Below are positions 5,230 through 11,193 of a stretch of DNA of 21,816 nucleotides, piece by piece. Position numbers and translations under genes: made by a program. The stretch comes from a virus, in the IMG/VR virus record IMGVR_UViG_3300042542_003620, positions 1-21,816 of that record. One strand, 5' to 3'. Position 1 is the stretch's first letter, and each line of letters begins with the position of its first letter. Below the pieces are notes generated by a model. It was not told where the DNA came from. It saw only the letters and a program-made list of their open reading frames with translations, and searched no databases.

Positions 5230-5706
5230 TTAAAAATCAAATTTACAGGGCGTGCCGATCAATTCTGTAGTTGCAATCCTAGGCGGCATCATCGCCATGA
5301 CTGGGGGTGGCGTGCTGGTGGCCGAGAATGAAACCGTGGTCAAACCGCCATCGCCGCCGCTGACCTGGAACAGCCCGCTGGAAATCTTGGAGAGGCCGCC
5401 CAAAATGACCTCAAATTGGGTCACTTCGATCAGCCATTGATTGGCCGCTGCTTGAAACACCAGCGACTCGACTGCGGGGGAATGTGCGCAGGTGATTGTG
5501 ACTGATCCCGATGTCAAGCCCGAATCAAGGCCTGGGCAGAAGAACTCCTGAAACTCCCAGCGCTGCACCCCGTCGCCATCGCCGGCATCAAAGGAAGTGA
5601 AGGGGCTGTTGTTGATCTCAAGCCGGTGCCAGCGCGCATTCGCGTTGCCGCCGGGGTCCAGCCACTTCAGCGTCTGGGTGTAGACGTGGGGGCCGTAGTC
5701 GGGCAT
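5230..5706 (-). CDS. Minor tail protein, 158 aa
   Basis: It starts in a TGATG overlap with the tape measure stop and ends 4 bp before the J-like ATG. That is the only gene between H and J, where lambda has M, L, K and I. The sequence is beta-rich (HRLEINNSPF, WEFQEFFCPGL, SGSVTITCAHS, FEVILGGLSKISSGLFQVSGGDG), with no membrane segment and no catalytic Cys/His pair of an NlpC/P60 hydrolase. A distal-tail or L/M-like adaptor joining the tube to the tip is the likely role by position. I do not recognise the family firmly; a DUF1833-type protein is possible. Confidence 0.65.
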   Translation of the reverse strand: MPDYGPHVYTQTLKWLDPGGNANARWHRLEINNSPFTSFDAGDGDGVQRWEFQEFFCPGLDSGLTSGSVTITCAHSPAVESLVFQAAANQWLIEVTQFEVILGGLSKISSGLFQVSGGDGGLTTVSFSATSTPPPVMAMMPPRIATTELIGTPCKFDF

Positions 5707-8700
5707 CAGGCAATCCCTATTGCGCGGCGGCCGTCAAAGCTCACCCGATAAGCTTCGTAATCTTCCAGCGCCCTAGCGGTGATTGATTCGGCGTCGGCCA
5801 GAGTTATGGCGTCGGCGCCATTTGGGAGTCGGTAGACTGGGCCGGTGTGGGCGAGTTTAAACTCAACGGCAAAGCTGCCAGCCCTGCTACCTCTGCTAAG
5901 GTTGCCAGCTCTTCCAAGTTGGCGCGTGCCGAGGCGCTTGTCGAGACTTTCGCCTCCGAGCCACGCATCAGAAAGCCTGGGCACGCGCTTTTGGACGCCG
6001 CGGCCCCCGTAATAATCAATGACCTCTTCCTGGGGATGCAGCATGGCCATAAATCCGCCCCGGCCATCAAGCCCGCCAGACCGTGGGCCGTTGCCGGTGT
6101 GGCCGCCGCCGGCAAACTGGGGCACATTCACGGGCTGGATCATCCCCAACTGCGGGCCCCGCACAGCGGCGCTCACCGAATTAGCCGCCTGGATGAGGCG
6201 GTTGATCTGCTCGATAAAGGCGTTGACTGCCCGCCCTGCCAGCGACAACGCCGAATTGATCACCCCGCGCACGGTGCCAACAATTGATTCCCAGGCGTCG
6301 GTAATGGGCTGCACCAGGCCCACGGCATAGTCCCGCATGCCATCCATGGCCAGATTCCAGGTCTGCCCCAGGCGGGCAATCAGGCCATTCTCTGGGCCGA
6401 TGATCGTGTCGAAGAATGCTGCAAAGTTGTCACTGATATTCGGCAGAATGTTGCTGACGTAACTGCTGATGTTGTCCATCATTATGTTCCAGCCGCCGCC
6501 GATCATTGCGACGAACCCGGTTTCAGGGTTGGCGATTAGGTTCCATAGCCCCCTAAAGGCATCGGCAATCTTGTCGCGAAAAGCAAAAATAACAACGCCC
6601 AACGCAACAGCCGCAATCGCCAAGCCCGCCGGTGATGCCGCCACAACTGCAACAAATCCCAGCGCCGCTTGCGCCCAACTGCCAATGGTGGCGGCGATCC
6701 CTGCCCCCTTGATTGCTGTCACAAATGGAGGCAACGCCCCAGCCCAGCCGGCGATGGTCGCGCCTAGACCAAGGCCAGCAATGGTTTTGAGAGAAAACGC
6801 CACGCCAACCAGGAGCGGTGCAGCGATTACAAGAGCAGCGCCAAGAGCCCCAAAGCCAATTGCTAATTGCGTAATCAACGGATGCTCTTTAGCAAACTCT
6901 GCTACGGCTTGTGCCATTTCAATAAACTTATGAATTGCAGTGTTGATATGCGGCAACAACTGACTGCCTATCTCAATCTGCAAATTTTCTACATTGTTTT
7001 TGGCTAATTGAATTTGCGCCGCAGTTGTTTCCATTTGAACTCCAGCCTCAACGGTAACCGACCCCATGTTTTTAGTTTCATCACTTGCAACTTTTAACAT
7101 CTCGGCGAGCTTTTGTGTATTGTTAATCATCGGAAACAATCCCCTAGCCTCATCGCCAAAAAAGTCAGTAAACGTAGGTAGTTGCAGCTCTTGCGGCAAG
7201 CTTTTGATTTTATCCAGCATCGCAATTATCGTAGGCTCTGCGTTAGTGACCATGTTTCTAGCCAACAACAAGCCTGCACTTTCGCCCGACTTCCTAGCCG
7301 CCTCGTCTTGTTGAATTTTCAGCATCTTTTGCTGACCATCGTACAAAGCTCTTTCTTCTGTAAAAGATGCTTCTATGCCTTGCTTTTTGCTGTCCAGCCT
7401 TTCTTGCTCTGCTTGCTTAAACGCGGCGACACTTTCTTCGTATGCCTTTTTTTCCTTGTCGGACCTGTCTTTAATTGCTTGTGATTCTTGCTCTTTTCTT
7501 TCATTAATTGCATCCATCCTTAACTGAGAAGCATCTTCTATTGCTCGCTGTTCGCGCTTTAGATATTGCTGCGAGGCTTCATCAGTGCCAGTAATCCGTT
7601 TGCGGAGTTGCTCTAATTGGTCTTCAGTTTGCCGGCGCTCTGCCGTCTCGATAGTTCTGTATTTTTTGTTCAGCTTTTTTTCCTCTTGAGATACCTGCTG
7701 ATCCAGGATTTTTAGTTGTTCATCCATCCGCCTCTGAGCTTCGCGCAACACGCCATTTGTTTCCACCTCGGCCAGCCTGATCGCGCCATCTTTGCGACGG
7801 TTCAGGGCGTTCTCATAGCGCCGATCCTCGGCCGATTGCACCATCTCATCTTGTGCCTGGCTAATAGCGGTAGCCGCCTGACCCGATGCCATTCCCAGGG
7901 TCTGCAGCGCTCGAATCTGCCGATCCGTCATGGAGTCGCCACGGGTGAGGGCTTTGACCATGTTGTTGAAGCTGGTGGCGGCGACCTCAGTTTCGACGCC
8001 TGCCGAGATCATCGCCGCCCCAAAACCTGCAACTTGCTCCGCCGTCAATCCTGCCTGCTGCCCAACAGCTCCAGACCGTAAAGCAAATTCGATCAGCTGT
8101 TTACCATTGGCAGCACCGGCTTTATCAAGTTCATTCATTGTATCGGCCAGCTTCAATACGTCTGGCTGCGTTAATTTCATGCTATCGCGCATCTTCGCAA
8201 TAGACAAACCGGCCTCATTTGCCGTCATATTGAAAGCAATACTTATCTTTGCAACATCTCCGGCAAATTGCCGTACTTCCTCCCTTGCGATGCCTGACGC
8301 GCCGGCAGCGGCGTAAATCTCTCCAAATCCCTTGGCTGAGATCGGCAGCTCTAGGGATAGTTCTCTGATCTCGTCTGAGATTTCCGCAATTGCAGCCGGC
8401 GTCTCTAGGCCATCCATCACCTTGCGGACCTGGGAGATGCTGGTCTCAAAATCAATGGCTGCTTTGGTGCTGGTCACTAGCGCAACGCCAAAGCCCGCCG
8501 CGCCAGCAGCAGCAGCCTGCCAGGATCGGCTGTTGAGCACAGCATCAAATCCCCGGCTGAAAGATGCGTCGATCTTGTTGAGGCCAGACAGGACCGACTG
8601 CAGGCGGGTGGCTTCTACGTGAACCACGCGCAACGATTCAGCCTGAGCCTGGGCCGCCCTAAGCTGCGCATCTGCTACTTCTCTTTTTTTGGCAACAATG

Positions 8701-9218
8701 TTTGTGGTTATTACTAGCTCTTCCTGCGCAATTCGGTTAGCAGTCCTGGCGGCCTCGGTCTGCCGCAACATCTCTGGCGTGATCTTGCCGTAGGCGCCAG
8801 CAGTGGAAACCACCGACTGGGCTCGCTGCAGCTCCAGTTGGGTGGCCGTCTTTTTTGCCTGGGCCGTCTTCAGCTCGCCGGCTAACTGCTCTTCTGTCTG
8901 CTTGCGCCGCAGCTCCGCGCCTTTGACCTCCAGTGCCGCCATTTGGTTCTGAGCCGCCGCCCGATCCCTGTCGTTATCCAACAGCTTCATCCGCGACGCC
9001 AGCACCTGCTTATCGGCGTCCAGAATCTGGATCGATGCTGCCGTGGCCGCGGCCATCTGACGCTCTATCCCGTCGGTGCTGAAGACGCGAGCATTCTCCT
9101 GGGCCGCCAGCTTGGCCGATTTCGACACATTGATCAGCGTGTCGGAGAGCTTTGTGACGCTGCCCATCCCTGCGACTTCGGCCCCAATCTTCAGAATCGC
9201 GTCAAAATTGACGGCCAT
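5706..9218 (-). CDS. H: Tail tape measure protein, TP901 type, 1170 aa
   Basis: This sets tail length and is ejected through the tube. Residues 1-230 are an Ala/Gln/Lys coiled coil. A TP901-type core begins near 255 (FETSISQVRKVMDGL, ELSLELPISAKGFGEIYAAAG, VAGFGAAMISAGVE) and resumes after about 645 (FTDFFGDEARGLFPMINN, IEIGSQLLPHINTAI near 748). Between 450 and 644 lies a very charged coiled coil that interrupts the core. Residues about 780-885 are long hydrophobic Ala/Gly/Val stretches, the expected membrane-active part. The C-terminus has GGGHTGNGPRSGG and a short globular end. A GAGGGG lies 6 bases before the ATG, and the start overlaps the upstream TAA by one base (TAATG). Using lambda's ratio of tail length to tape length, a tail of about 170-190 nm is inferred. 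Confidence 0.93.
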   Translation of the reverse strand: MAVNFDAILKIGAEVAGMGSVTKLSDTLINVSKSAKLAAQENARVFSTDGIERQMAAATAASIQILDADKQVLASRMKLLDNDRDRAAAQNQMAALEVKGAELRRKQTEEQLAGELKTAQAKKTATQLELQRAQSVVSTAGAYGKITPEMLRQTEAARTANRIAQEELVITTNIVAKKREVADAQLRAAQAQAESLRVVHVEATRLQSVLSGLNKIDASFSRGFDAVLNSRSWQAAAAGAAGFGVALVTSTKAAIDFETSISQVRKVMDGLETPAAIAEISDEIRELSLELPISAKGFGEIYAAAGASGIAREEVRQFAGDVAKISIAFNMTANEAGLSIAKMRDSMKLTQPDVLKLADTMNELDKAGAANGKQLIEFALRSGAVGQQAGLTAEQVAGFGAAMISAGVETEVAATSFNNMVKALTRGDSMTDRQIRALQTLGMASGQAATAISQAQDEMVQSAEDRRYENALNRRKDGAIRLAEVETNGVLREAQRRMDEQLKILDQQVSQEEKKLNKKYRTIETAERRQTEDQLEQLRKRITGTDEASQQYLKREQRAIEDASQLRMDAINERKEQESQAIKDRSDKEKKAYEESVAAFKQAEQERLDSKKQGIEASFTEERALYDGQQKMLKIQQDEAARKSGESAGLLLARNMVTNAEPTIIAMLDKIKSLPQELQLPTFTDFFGDEARGLFPMINNTQKLAEMLKVASDETKNMGSVTVEAGVQMETTAAQIQLAKNNVENLQIEIGSQLLPHINTAIHKFIEMAQAVAEFAKEHPLITQLAIGFGALGAALVIAAPLLVGVAFSLKTIAGLGLGATIAGWAGALPPFVTAIKGAGIAATIGSWAQAALGFVAVVAASPAGLAIAAVALGVVIFAFRDKIADAFRGLWNLIANPETGFVAMIGGGWNIMMDNISSYVSNILPNISDNFAAFFDTIIGPENGLIARLGQTWNLAMDGMRDYAVGLVQPITDAWESIVGTVRGVINSALSLAGRAVNAFIEQINRLIQAANSVSAAVRGPQLGMIQPVNVPQFAGGGHTGNGPRSGGLDGRGGFMAMLHPQEEVIDYYGGRGVQKRVPRLSDAWLGGESLDKRLGTRQLGRAGNLSRGSRAGSFAVEFKLAHTGPVYRLPNGADAITLADAESITARALEDYEAYRVSFDGRRAIGIA

Positions 9219-9583
9219 TAGGAACCCCTCAGCAGTGTCAGCAACTCCAACTCGATGACGCGCAGATCATCCAGCAGCGCAGCAACCGCACCACGGCCGC
9301 GCCGCAGGCCCGCCAGGGCGATCACCGCCGGATAGTTGAGCCCGGTGCGCACTCGGTACGGATGCCCCTCTGGGGTGTATTCAGTGGCCCACTGCCATTG
9401 GGTTTGGACCTGGCACCAGAGCAAGAAGGCCTCCCAGTTCTCGGGCCATATCCAGCAAGTGGGCTCAGTAGGCTTGGGCCGATCCTCGCGGGGCTGAGGC
9501 ACGTAGACGATGCCCATGGCTTCGGCCGCCCGGCGCTGCCCTGCGTCCTCCTGCTCCCGTGTTTTGGCCGGCACCTGGGTCAT
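9218..9583 (-). CDS. T: Tail assembly chaperone T-like ORF (DUF1799), likely made as a G-T fusion
   Basis: Residues 44-84 show the DUF1799 signature: W-I-WPENW, then a hydrophobic stretch, TQWQW, and GLNYPAVIAL. The ORF's own ATG overlaps the upstream stop (ATGA), so it could be translated alone. However, the frame stays open upstream to 9625, exactly where a -1 shift at the GGGAAAG heptamer enters it. The added residues AANLQEIAREWFRQ look like a helix that belongs to the protein. In lambda the T part is made only as gpG-T, which binds tail tube subunits and the tape measure during tail assembly and is absent from the virion. The predicted fusion is 139 + 135 = 274 aa; lambda gpG-T is about 279. 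Confidence 0.85.
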   Translation of the reverse strand: MTQVPAKTREQEDAGQRRAAEAMGIVYVPQPREDRPKPTEPTCWIWPENWEAFLLWCQVQTQWQWATEYTPEGHPYRVRTGLNYPAVIALAGLRRGRGAVAALLDDLRVIELELLTLLRGS

Positions 9584-10041
9584 TTGTCGAAACCATTCCC
9601 TTGCGATTTCTTGGAGGTTGGCGGCTTTCCCTCGCTGTCACCGTCGAGGCCCTTGAGTTTTAGCCATGCCGCAACAATGGCACTCGCCATGCCCTCAATT
9701 CGAAGCATTTTGTTTTTTTCTTCTTCGGTGTACTCAAGGGGGTCACCACCTGGGTCGCGCACATCCTCCCCCCAGCCGCCCAGGATGCGATCAGCCCAAT
9801 CAATGTCGCTGACATTTGTGGCGCCCTTGGTGGCTTCGGGCAAAAGGCGCCCCTCGGTAATAGCCTTTCGAGTTTGGTCCCAATGCCAAATGGCTTGAGT
9901 TAAGGTATTAACTTCCTTTTGGTCCATCCGATTAAACTTAGCCGTAAAGGCCAAGTCTTCAGTTTCTCCATTTTTTAAGACAGCACCTTTTAGCACTACT
10001 CGGCAGGGATAGGTGCCGTCTACATTGAGCTTGTCAAACAT
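9580..10041 (-). CDS. G: Tail assembly chaperone, G-like, 153 aa
   Basis: It lies between tail tube and tape measure genes, as in lambda, and is followed by the DUF1799-like ORF. It begins MFDKLNVDGTYPCRVVLKG with a beta-rich N-terminal half (LAFTAKFNRMDQKEV). The middle is charged and helical. An acidic and hydrophilic C-terminal tail (DGDSEGKPPTSKKSQGNG) contains the slippery codons GGA-AAG at residues 138-139. The length is close to lambda gpG (140 aa). It would coat the tape measure during tail assembly, with a minority extended to the G-T form. A 41-bp gap separates it from the tail tube gene, the longest in the operon, and no strong Shine-Dalgarno is visible there. Confidence 0.82.
   Translation of the reverse strand: MFDKLNVDGTYPCRVVLKGAVLKNGETEDLAFTAKFNRMDQKEVNTLTQAIWHWDQTRKAITEGRLLPEATKGATNVSDIDWADRILGGWGEDVRDPGGDPLEYTEEEKNKMLRIEGMASAIVAAWLKLKGLDGDSEGKPPTSKKSQGNGFDK
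9625..9631 (-). promoter_or_regulatory. -1 ribosomal frameshift site GGGAAAG (G to G-T)
   Basis: On the minus strand the heptamer reads G GGA AAG in the frame of the upstream chaperone gene (GGA starts at 9630, a multiple of three from the ATG at 10041). It therefore has the X XXY YYZ phasing needed for simultaneous slippage. The same heptamer is used in lambda gene G. After a -1 shift, reading continues from 9625 in the frame of the downstream ORF (42 bases, 14 codons, upstream of its ATG) with no stop. I see no strong stem-loop just downstream. Confidence 0.85.
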
Positions 10042-10082: not shown

Positions 10083-11027
10083 TTAGGTCTGAACAATCGT
10101 CAGCTCTTGGTTAGCCGCTTCGGCAACCATCCGGCCTTGAAGTTGAATGTAGTTGTTATCCTTGACATTGACAAGGCTAGGCATTACCTGAACTTGTGGC
10201 AAGTTGAAGGTGTTGATGTTGCCAGCCACCGTACCGACTGGAAGCACCAACGCGCCTAGCTGAGAGTTAGAAGCATTGGTGAACACGTCCAATGTTTCAA
10301 TTGGAGGGCGAGCGATTGTAAGAGTAAATGTTACAGTTCGATCGGTAAAATCAATGTGAGGCACGCACCCAGCATTATCGTAATACTGGGTAATATTTTC
10401 GATGGTCAGCTCAAACGCCTCTACACAAACCCCAACACCGGCAAACGTCAGCGAGCCCGGTGTAGTGCTGGACGAATCAAACGGCACCGAATTGGCCAGT
10501 GGCGCCGGATAGCTCGGGGTTGGGTTGGCAACGGTTGCAGGAGGGCGGTAGAGGCCCATGTAGCTGGCAACGGCGCTCAATGGCTGCCCAGCCTGGCCGC
10601 TGATTACCAGCTTGCTGACTCGCCCGCCAGCAGCGGAGTACACCACGCCATCGCGGTGAAACCGTGCGGTGTGGGTGACCGCCGGCGGGGGCCATGCCAG
10701 GGCGTAGCTCACACTGCCGCTGCCCCCCGCGACCACGCTGGAATTGAAGCCTGCGGCCAGCATCACCGCATTAAGGGCCGAGATCGCGCCACGGGTGCCC
10801 GAGCCCGCAAACTCAAACGGGATGTCAGCGGAAACTTTGCGCTCGGTGATCGCCGCTGCCCGCTGCGTGCCAGGGCGAGCGCCTAGCTGTGTTCGCTCAA
10901 CCTCGACCCAGTCGGCAACATTGGGGTCAAACGATCCGCAAGGGATCGCGTTAGCCCCGGTCAGCGTTACCGCTGTGCCGCTGGTTGTTTCGGGGCCCAG
11001 GAGGAAAATTTGATCGCGGTAAGGCAT
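10083..11027 (-). CDS. V: Major tail tube protein, V-like, 314 aa
   Basis: It begins MPYRDQIFLLGPETTSGTAV, a typical tail tube N-terminus, and is beta-rich throughout. Notable segments are VEVERTQLGARPG, VSADIPFEFAGSG, then ISALNAVMLAAGF, and a C-terminal strand pair NNYIQLQGRMVA-EAANQELTIVQT. It forms the hexameric rings of the tail tube. It is longer than lambda V (246 aa), so an extra surface domain is possible. A GAGG sits 9 bases before the ATG. Its first 77 bases overlap the end of the small 80-aa gene in another frame. The position directly upstream of the G/T chaperones supports the call. Confidence 0.82.
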   Translation of the reverse strand: MPYRDQIFLLGPETTSGTAVTLTGANAIPCGSFDPNVADWVEVERTQLGARPGTQRAAAITERKVSADIPFEFAGSGTRGAISALNAVMLAAGFNSSVVAGGSGSVSYALAWPPPAVTHTARFHRDGVVYSAAGGRVSKLVISGQAGQPLSAVASYMGLYRPPATVANPTPSYPAPLANSVPFDSSSTTPGSLTFAGVGVCVEAFELTIENITQYYDNAGCVPHIDFTDRTVTFTLTIARPPIETLDVFTNASNSQLGALVLPVGTVAGNINTFNLPQVQVMPSLVNVKDNNYIQLQGRMVAEAANQELTIVQT

Positions 11028-11193
11028 CGGTCGAATCCTCGGGGGGTGATGGTTGAGGGGTTTGCTGGTCGGTGGCGGGAAGCTCTACTGCGGCAAAGGG
11101 CGCAACCTGCTGCCAATCGGACTGGCCCGGCTCCCAAATGAACTGGCCAGCCCCTTGGGGAAGCGGGGGAGGCGTGGGGTCTTCAGTGCTCAT
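10951..11193 (-). CDS. Small Pro-rich hypothetical protein, 80 aa
   Basis: It starts in an ATGA overlap with the tail terminator stop, and its last 77 bases overlap the tail tube gene in a different frame. Residues 1-36 (PTPPPLPQGAGQFIWEPGQ, SDWQQVAPFAAVEL) look conserved-domain-like. The rest is Pro/Ser/Gln-rich and probably disordered. There is no membrane segment. Small linker genes between U and V occur in many siphophages, but I do not recognise this one. The start overlap favours a real gene, although the long overlap at its end is unusual. Confidence 0.5.
   Translation of the reverse strand: MSTEDPTPPPLPQGAGQFIWEPGQSDWQQVAPFAAVELPATDQQTPQPSPPEDSTDALPRSNFPPGPRNNQRHSGNADRG

What the first reader, a model, noticed from the sequence alone, without database searches (positions are those of the whole stretch)
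9580..9640. Lambda-type -1 frameshift that makes a G-T tail chaperone fusion
GGGAAAG lies in the X XXY YYZ phase in the chaperone gene (GGA at 9630, AAG at 9627). After a -1 shift the frame is open from 9625 into the DUF1799-like ORF, adding AANLQEIAREWFRQ before that ORF's Met. The fusion is 274 aa, close to lambda gpG-T. The phasing and open frame are read directly; the lambda parallel is established knowledge. An odd point is that the second ORF also has a coupled ATGA start, so it might additionally be made as a free protein.
Basis: partly seen in the sequence, partly recalled or inferred. Interest (0 to 1): 0.65.

Follow-up and report, generated by a model that had tools for sequence, protein, structure and literature searches.

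The report
T1-type tail-chaperone frameshift, cyanophage-like group
This phage gene carries a signal that makes some ribosomes slip back one base, producing a long and a short version of a tail-building helper protein; this is a well-known phage trick and here an unannotated member of the phage T1 type, with hints about which part of the long version recognises the tail tube.

Summary
GGGAAAG lies at 9631-9625 (-) in X XXY YYZ phase (gaG GGA AAG), is the window's only copy, and starts 6 nt into a 58-nt stretch where the -1 frame is open; the fusion is 274 aa. All 56 distinct complete relatives in a wide survey keep an in-phase slippery heptamer there (GGGAAAG, AAAAAAG, AAAAAAC, GGGAAAC or AAAAAAA), even where the G protein is only about 30% identical. 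The -1-frame stretch before the Met is an ancestral helix of the T domain (one Leu invariant down to phage T1), which a protein begun at the ATGA would lack. So frameshifting is very likely the real expression mode; some free T cannot be excluded. The 'lambda' label needs correction: mechanism and heptamer are lambda-like, but the proteins belong to the phage T1 pair (Phage_TAC_4 + DUF1799), not to lambda G/T (PF06894 + PF06223). Among relatives the G half is exchanged as a cassette with its joint at the heptamer, and the T linker type follows the tail-tube type across the exchanged G, as expected if T binds the tube. New member of a known kind, unannotated in cyanophages. Nothing was shown experimentally.

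The parts
9580..10041 (-). G: short tail assembly chaperone, 153 aa (0-frame product)
   Evidence: ORF; relatives 33-43% identical match Phage_TAC_4 PF08748, L021 at 21.5 bits vs cut-off 21.1; profile vs phage T1 G E 6.6e-5; phrog_569 E 7e-4; fold resembles annotated tape measure chaperones of Serratia phage Scapp, prob 1.00, E 1.3e-3
9625..9631 (-). slippery heptamer G GGA AAG
   Evidence: sequence and phase; only copy in window; in-phase heptamer in all complete viral and genome-contig relatives surveyed
9638..9640 (-). TGA stop in the -1 frame just upstream of the heptamer, which limits where a productive shift can occur
   Evidence: -1 frame open only from 9637
9584..9625 (-). -1-frame stretch AANLQEIAREWFRQ, made only by frameshifting; first helix of T
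   Evidence: conserved better in the -1 frame than in the 0 frame; Leu invariant from window to T1, HK639 and S-CBS1; predicted helix 2-16
9580..9583 (-). ATGA: G stop overlapping the first in-frame ATG of T; possible reinitiation site
   Evidence: sequence; 18/18 near junctions; CTG in L046; absent in distant relatives
9218..9583 (-). T ORF from its first Met, 121 aa
   Evidence: DUF1799 PF08809, 33.7 bits vs cut-off 26; phrog_680 E 2.8e-14
9464..9583 (-). T linker (about 40 aa after Met) whose sequence type follows the tail-tube type
   Evidence: Mantel r 0.776 with tube distance, partial r 0.744 given G, 33 distinct loci
9239..9457 (-). DUF1799 domain of T
10083..11027 (-). tail tube protein, predicted partner of T
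   Evidence: Phage_tube_2 PF18906 E 6.8e-18
5706..9218 (-). tape measure protein, predicted partner of G; start overlaps T stop (TAATG)
   Evidence: PhageMin_Tail E 5.8e-26; phrog_28 E 2.6e-64

Best explanation
This is a programmed -1 ribosomal frameshift in a tail assembly chaperone gene of the phage T1 type (Phage_TAC_4 + DUF1799). Most ribosomes read G to its stop at 9580 and make the 153-aa chaperone. A minority, with Gly- and Lys-tRNAs on GGA AAG, slip back one base onto GGG AAA and continue from 9625 in the -1 frame, making a 274-aa G-T fusion. By analogy with lambda, G coats the tape measure protein and the T part recruits tail tube subunits, so the ratio of the two products matters. 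Shown: heptamer, phase, open frame, conservation, constraint on the -1 peptide, association of T linker and tube types. Inferred: that frameshifting occurs, its rate, and the binding partners. Not resolved: whether some free T is also made from the ATGA.
For: Heptamer in exact phase at the start of the only stretch where -1 is open. Kept in 18/18 distinct near junctions, including loci whose G is 33-43% identical, and in 56/56 distinct complete loci of the wide survey. The heptamer changes type while phase is kept: GGGAAAG, or AAAAAAG one codon downstream; AAAAAAC or GGGAAAC right before the G stop in distant relatives. The base before the two codons belongs to five different codons (GAG, TTG, GTG; GGA, GCA) yet always supplies the needed X (the loci counted there were found by the heptamer pattern, so the variety of codons, not the 100%, is the evidence). 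The -1 frame before the Met is more conserved than the 0 frame (pairwise identity 0.82 vs 0.73; excess of synonymous changes in -1 p=0.053, none in 0 frame p=0.92) and is part of the family-wide T domain. Position between tube and tape measure genes. Related named phages Silvanus and Smarc2 carry joined 'tape measure chaperone' / 'pre-tape measure frameshift' annotations. T linker follows tube type across exchanged G.
Against: No direct evidence of frameshifting in this phage. No supported downstream RNA structure: z-scores of the window's folds are 0.4 to 1.8, i.e. weaker than shuffles, and a 7-pair consensus hairpin shows no covariation. The window's own G is not hit by Pfam; membership comes through relatives and profile comparison. 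One lineage of the family (Klebsiella phages) keeps both ORFs without a canonical heptamer (C CAA AAG instead). The ATGA would also allow coupled translation of T.
Confidence: 0.92

Rival explanations
1. Both products are made: G-T by frameshifting and, in addition, a free T by termination-reinitiation at ATGA.
For: ATGA present in 18/18 near junctions; ATGA or TGATG couplings are common between this phage's genes.
Against: ATG follows by chance in about 1 of 4 cases once the stop is TGA, and its Met is also coded by the -1 frame, so its conservation does not need a start function. The nearest SD-like stretch (AGGG) ends 14 nt upstream, too far for a good site. Starting at Met would delete the conserved first helix. 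L046 has CTG and distant relatives have no start there.
Confidence: 0.25
2. No frameshifting: G and T are two separate proteins joined only by translational coupling, and the heptamer is incidental.
For: The ORFs overlap by 4 nt like other coupled genes in the window.
Against: In-phase heptamers throughout the relatives with turnover of type, and constraint in the -1 frame upstream of the Met.
Confidence: 0.03
3. The -1 relation is a sequencing or assembly error in a single continuous gene.
For: None found.
Against: The same -1 relation occurs in dozens of separately assembled contigs and in finished phage genomes.
Confidence: 0.01

Closest known systems
Phage T1 tail chaperone pair (ST40/ST39; Phage_TAC_4 + DUF1799) and relatives HK639, S-CBS1, S-LBS1, Silvanus, Smarc2
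   Same: Same two protein families, same gene order (tube, G, T, tape measure), -1 relation, in-phase slippery heptamer
   Different: There the heptamer is AAAAAAC or GGGAAAC directly before the G stop and T has no start codon at the junction; here GGGAAAG begins 52 nt before the end of the G stop, G has a 0-frame tail past the slip, and the junction carries ATGA
Phage lambda G / G-T
   Same: Same heptamer GGGAAAG, same -1 direction, same place between tail tube and tape measure, similar sizes
   Different: Lambda G is Phage_TAC_2 PF06894 and T is Phage_tail_T PF06223; no detectable similarity (hhalign E 0.39 and 0.69)
Acinetobacter phage Loki gp12/gp13 (PMC5313236)
   Same: AAAAAAC next to the stop of the chaperone gene, proposed frameshift fusion
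   Different: Only proposed there; a different phage group, and its protein families were not tested here

Membership tests
Phage_TAC_4 / DUF1799 frameshifted tail chaperone (phage T1 type) | T half matches DUF1799 (PF08809) | tested here: met
   33.7 bits, cut-off 26
Phage_TAC_4 / DUF1799 frameshifted tail chaperone (phage T1 type) | G half matches Phage_TAC_4 (PF08748) | tested here: inconclusive
   Window G itself has no Pfam hit; its 37%-identical homologue L021 passes the cut-off and L013 and L042 come close; profile vs T1 G E 6.6e-5, prob 64%
Phage_TAC_4 / DUF1799 frameshifted tail chaperone (phage T1 type) | Lies between tail tube and tape measure genes | tested here: met
Phage_TAC_4 / DUF1799 frameshifted tail chaperone (phage T1 type) | T in -1 frame, with T-domain residues coded between slip site and first start codon | tested here: met
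-1 programmed ribosomal frameshift (X XXY YYZ) | In-phase slippery heptamer in the overlap | tested here: met
-1 programmed ribosomal frameshift (X XXY YYZ) | Conservation of the heptamer beyond coding need | tested here: met
-1 programmed ribosomal frameshift (X XXY YYZ) | Stimulatory downstream structure (present in many, not a required feature) | tested here: not met
   no supported structure
-1 programmed ribosomal frameshift (X XXY YYZ) | Measured frameshift product | not testable with these tools
   needs a reporter assay or mass spectrometry
Lambda G / T protein families (PF06894 / PF06223) | Sequence homology to lambda gpG and gpT | tested here: not met

The most novel reading that the evidence does not exclude
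In this phage group the slippery site doubles as a recombination joint: different G heads are exchanged up to the heptamer, while a roughly 40-residue T linker just after it follows the tail-tube type. The linker would then be the tube-recognising element of the fusion, and these phages a natural swap experiment for how the chaperone chooses its tube.
Probability: 0.4. Interest if true: 0.5.

Novelty: new member of a known kind. Interest (0 to 1): 0.3.

Why it matters
It adds an unannotated group to the T1-type tail chaperone frameshifts; the cyanophages S-CBS1 and S-LBS1 have the same kind of unannotated site. It shows that the frameshift-only peptide is a conserved helix of the T domain, so annotation of T from its first ATG is probably wrong in these phages. 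The matching of T linker and tube types gives a testable map of the tube contact.

Tried and rejected
Close homologues in named phages with the window proteins as queries: none; reached only through intermediate relatives. RNA stimulator: single-sequence folds no better than shuffles in most loci, consensus hairpin without covariation and weakened in the window; Rfam, tRNA and promoter or terminator scans gave nothing relevant. Homology to lambda G and T: none. Solved structures: no significant match for G or T by sequence or for G by fold; fold search of T among viral models not significant, best hit a tape measure chaperone at E 0.18. NCBIfam: nothing above cut-off. An independent link between G and tube types vanished once the T linker was controlled for (partial r 0.03); G vs the tape measure N-terminus showed no significant link, so the expected G-tape measure pairing was not seen.

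Full report
Observation. On the - strand the 153-aa ORF 10041-9580 contains GAG GGA AAG at 9633-9625, so GGGAAAG (9631-9625) is in X XXY YYZ phase. It is the only GGGAAAG in the window, 3.5 being expected by chance. The -1 frame has a stop at 9640-9638 and is open from 9637 on, so only a 58-nt stretch up to the G stop can lead to T, and the heptamer is at its start. After the shift the reading is AANLQEIAREWFRQ-M..., and the fusion is 274 aa. In this genome any in-phase XXXYYYZ within 16 codons has a chance of about 8%, so the case rests on relatives.

Relatives. Scans of viral contigs with both halves gave 18 distinct junctions; all have the -1 relation and an in-phase GGGAAAG or AAAAAAG beginning about 49-52 nt before the end of the G stop. 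In many of them G is only 33-43% identical to the window's. A wider scan gave 56 distinct complete loci, near loci included, all with an in-phase heptamer: 25 AAAAAAC, 16 AAAAAAG, 13 GGGAAAG, 1 GGGAAAC, 1 AAAAAAA. In the distant group the heptamer lies directly before the G stop and T has no start codon there. Of named phages, HK639, S-CBS1, S-LBS1, KLB26, RC1, Silvanus, Smarc2, T1, phiES15, PS-1, Silvergun and LF82-19 have AAAAAAC or GGGAAAC; the exception is a Klebsiella phage lineage (4 records read) with C CAA AAG at that place. The relatives are not independent samples, and several share recent ancestry; what carries weight is that the heptamer persists across G families and changes type without losing phase. 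The codon before it differs (GAG, TTG, GTG, GGA, GCA) but ends in the base the heptamer needs.

The -1-frame stretch before the Met. Over 15 distinct 42-mers the -1 reading is more conserved than the 0 reading (identity 0.82 vs 0.73), with more synonymous changes than expected in -1 (p=0.053) and no excess in 0 (p=0.92); this test alone is weak. An alignment from the slip site across the family shows why: the window's NLQEIAREW aligns with KLIGAAEHW (S-CBS1), KLRQVAAALY (HK639) and KLKRAVYLLY (T1), with the Leu invariant in all 17. AlphaFold2 predicts one helix over residues 2-16, across the Met (pLDDT 75, pTM 0.58, moderate). A protein begun at the ATGA would lack this element.

Families. T is DUF1799. 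G relatives match Phage_TAC_4, one above the curated cut-off; the G profile matches T1 G at E 6.6e-5. T1's own pair scores as Phage_TAC_4 + DUF1799. Lambda's pair is Phage_TAC_2 + Phage_tail_T with no similarity to ours. The G model resembles tape measure chaperones of Serratia phage Scapp, including a 236-aa entry whose length would suit a frameshift product (E 1.3e-3, TM about 0.4). So it works like lambda G-T and belongs with the T1 type.

Mechanism. In lambda, gpG and the G part of gpG-T bind the tape measure protein and T binds the tail tube protein, in a ratio of about 30:1 (review PMC5009743, which also lists G_GGA_AAG among highly shift-prone heptamers in E. coli). The same division of labour is inferred here.

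Mosaicism. Nucleotide profiles show that WIN and L016 share tube and T (mostly 80-97%) but not G, with similarity returning at the heptamer; WIN and L003 share G and the DUF1799 domain but differ in both the tube and the T linker. Over 33 distinct loci the distance of the T linker correlates with that of the tube (Mantel r 0.776; 0.744 given G), while G adds nothing once the linker is known (0.03). The linker class follows the tube class in all 10 tube x G combinations seen; with 6 against 4, random matching would give this in 1 of 210 cases (own arithmetic; the classes were grouped after seeing the data, so this is a lead and not a test). G lies between tube and linker, which argues against simple linkage, but shared ancestry of the tube-linker pairs is not excluded.

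The ATGA. Given TGA as G stop, the -1 frame must read NTG at that point; ATG needs only an A before it. The Met is also part of the fusion. Conservation of ATG is therefore expected either way. Free T remains possible and is given 0.25.

Limits. No experiment. The host is unknown; a contig in a Synechococcaceae genome bin (L046) and the cyanophages S-CBS1 and S-LBS1 are the nearest hints. The window is a 21.8-kb virus record with nothing further held. The library lacks the original lambda papers, so novelty of the mosaic pattern was searched only in open-access text.

Noticed in passing
L132, L139, L140, L141 (Klebsiella phages): This lineage of the family keeps G, T and the post-slip helix (ALTAAIEGLY) but has C CAA AAG instead of a canonical heptamer, plus a GTG 25 nt before the end of the G stop; either a non-canonical slip site or separate initiation.
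   Followed up: partly
L130 (S-CBS1), L131 (S-LBS1), L129 (HK639): The AAAAAAC frameshift site is present but no joined gene is annotated; T is annotated from internal starts in the cyanophages and not at all in HK639.
   Followed up: partly
window 5706-9218: Several relatives align to the tape measure protein only over pieces (about 458 residues and more), suggesting an insertion or length differences in the window's tape measure.
   Followed up: no
L046: A DUF1799 relative in a short contig of a Synechococcaceae genome bin has AAAAAAA and CTGA instead of ATGA, an intermediate architecture.
   Followed up: partly
window 10951-11193 and 10083-11027: An 80-aa ORF overlaps the start of the tail tube gene by 77 nt in another frame; most relatives with a near-identical tube keep it at 81-91% identity.
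   Followed up: no
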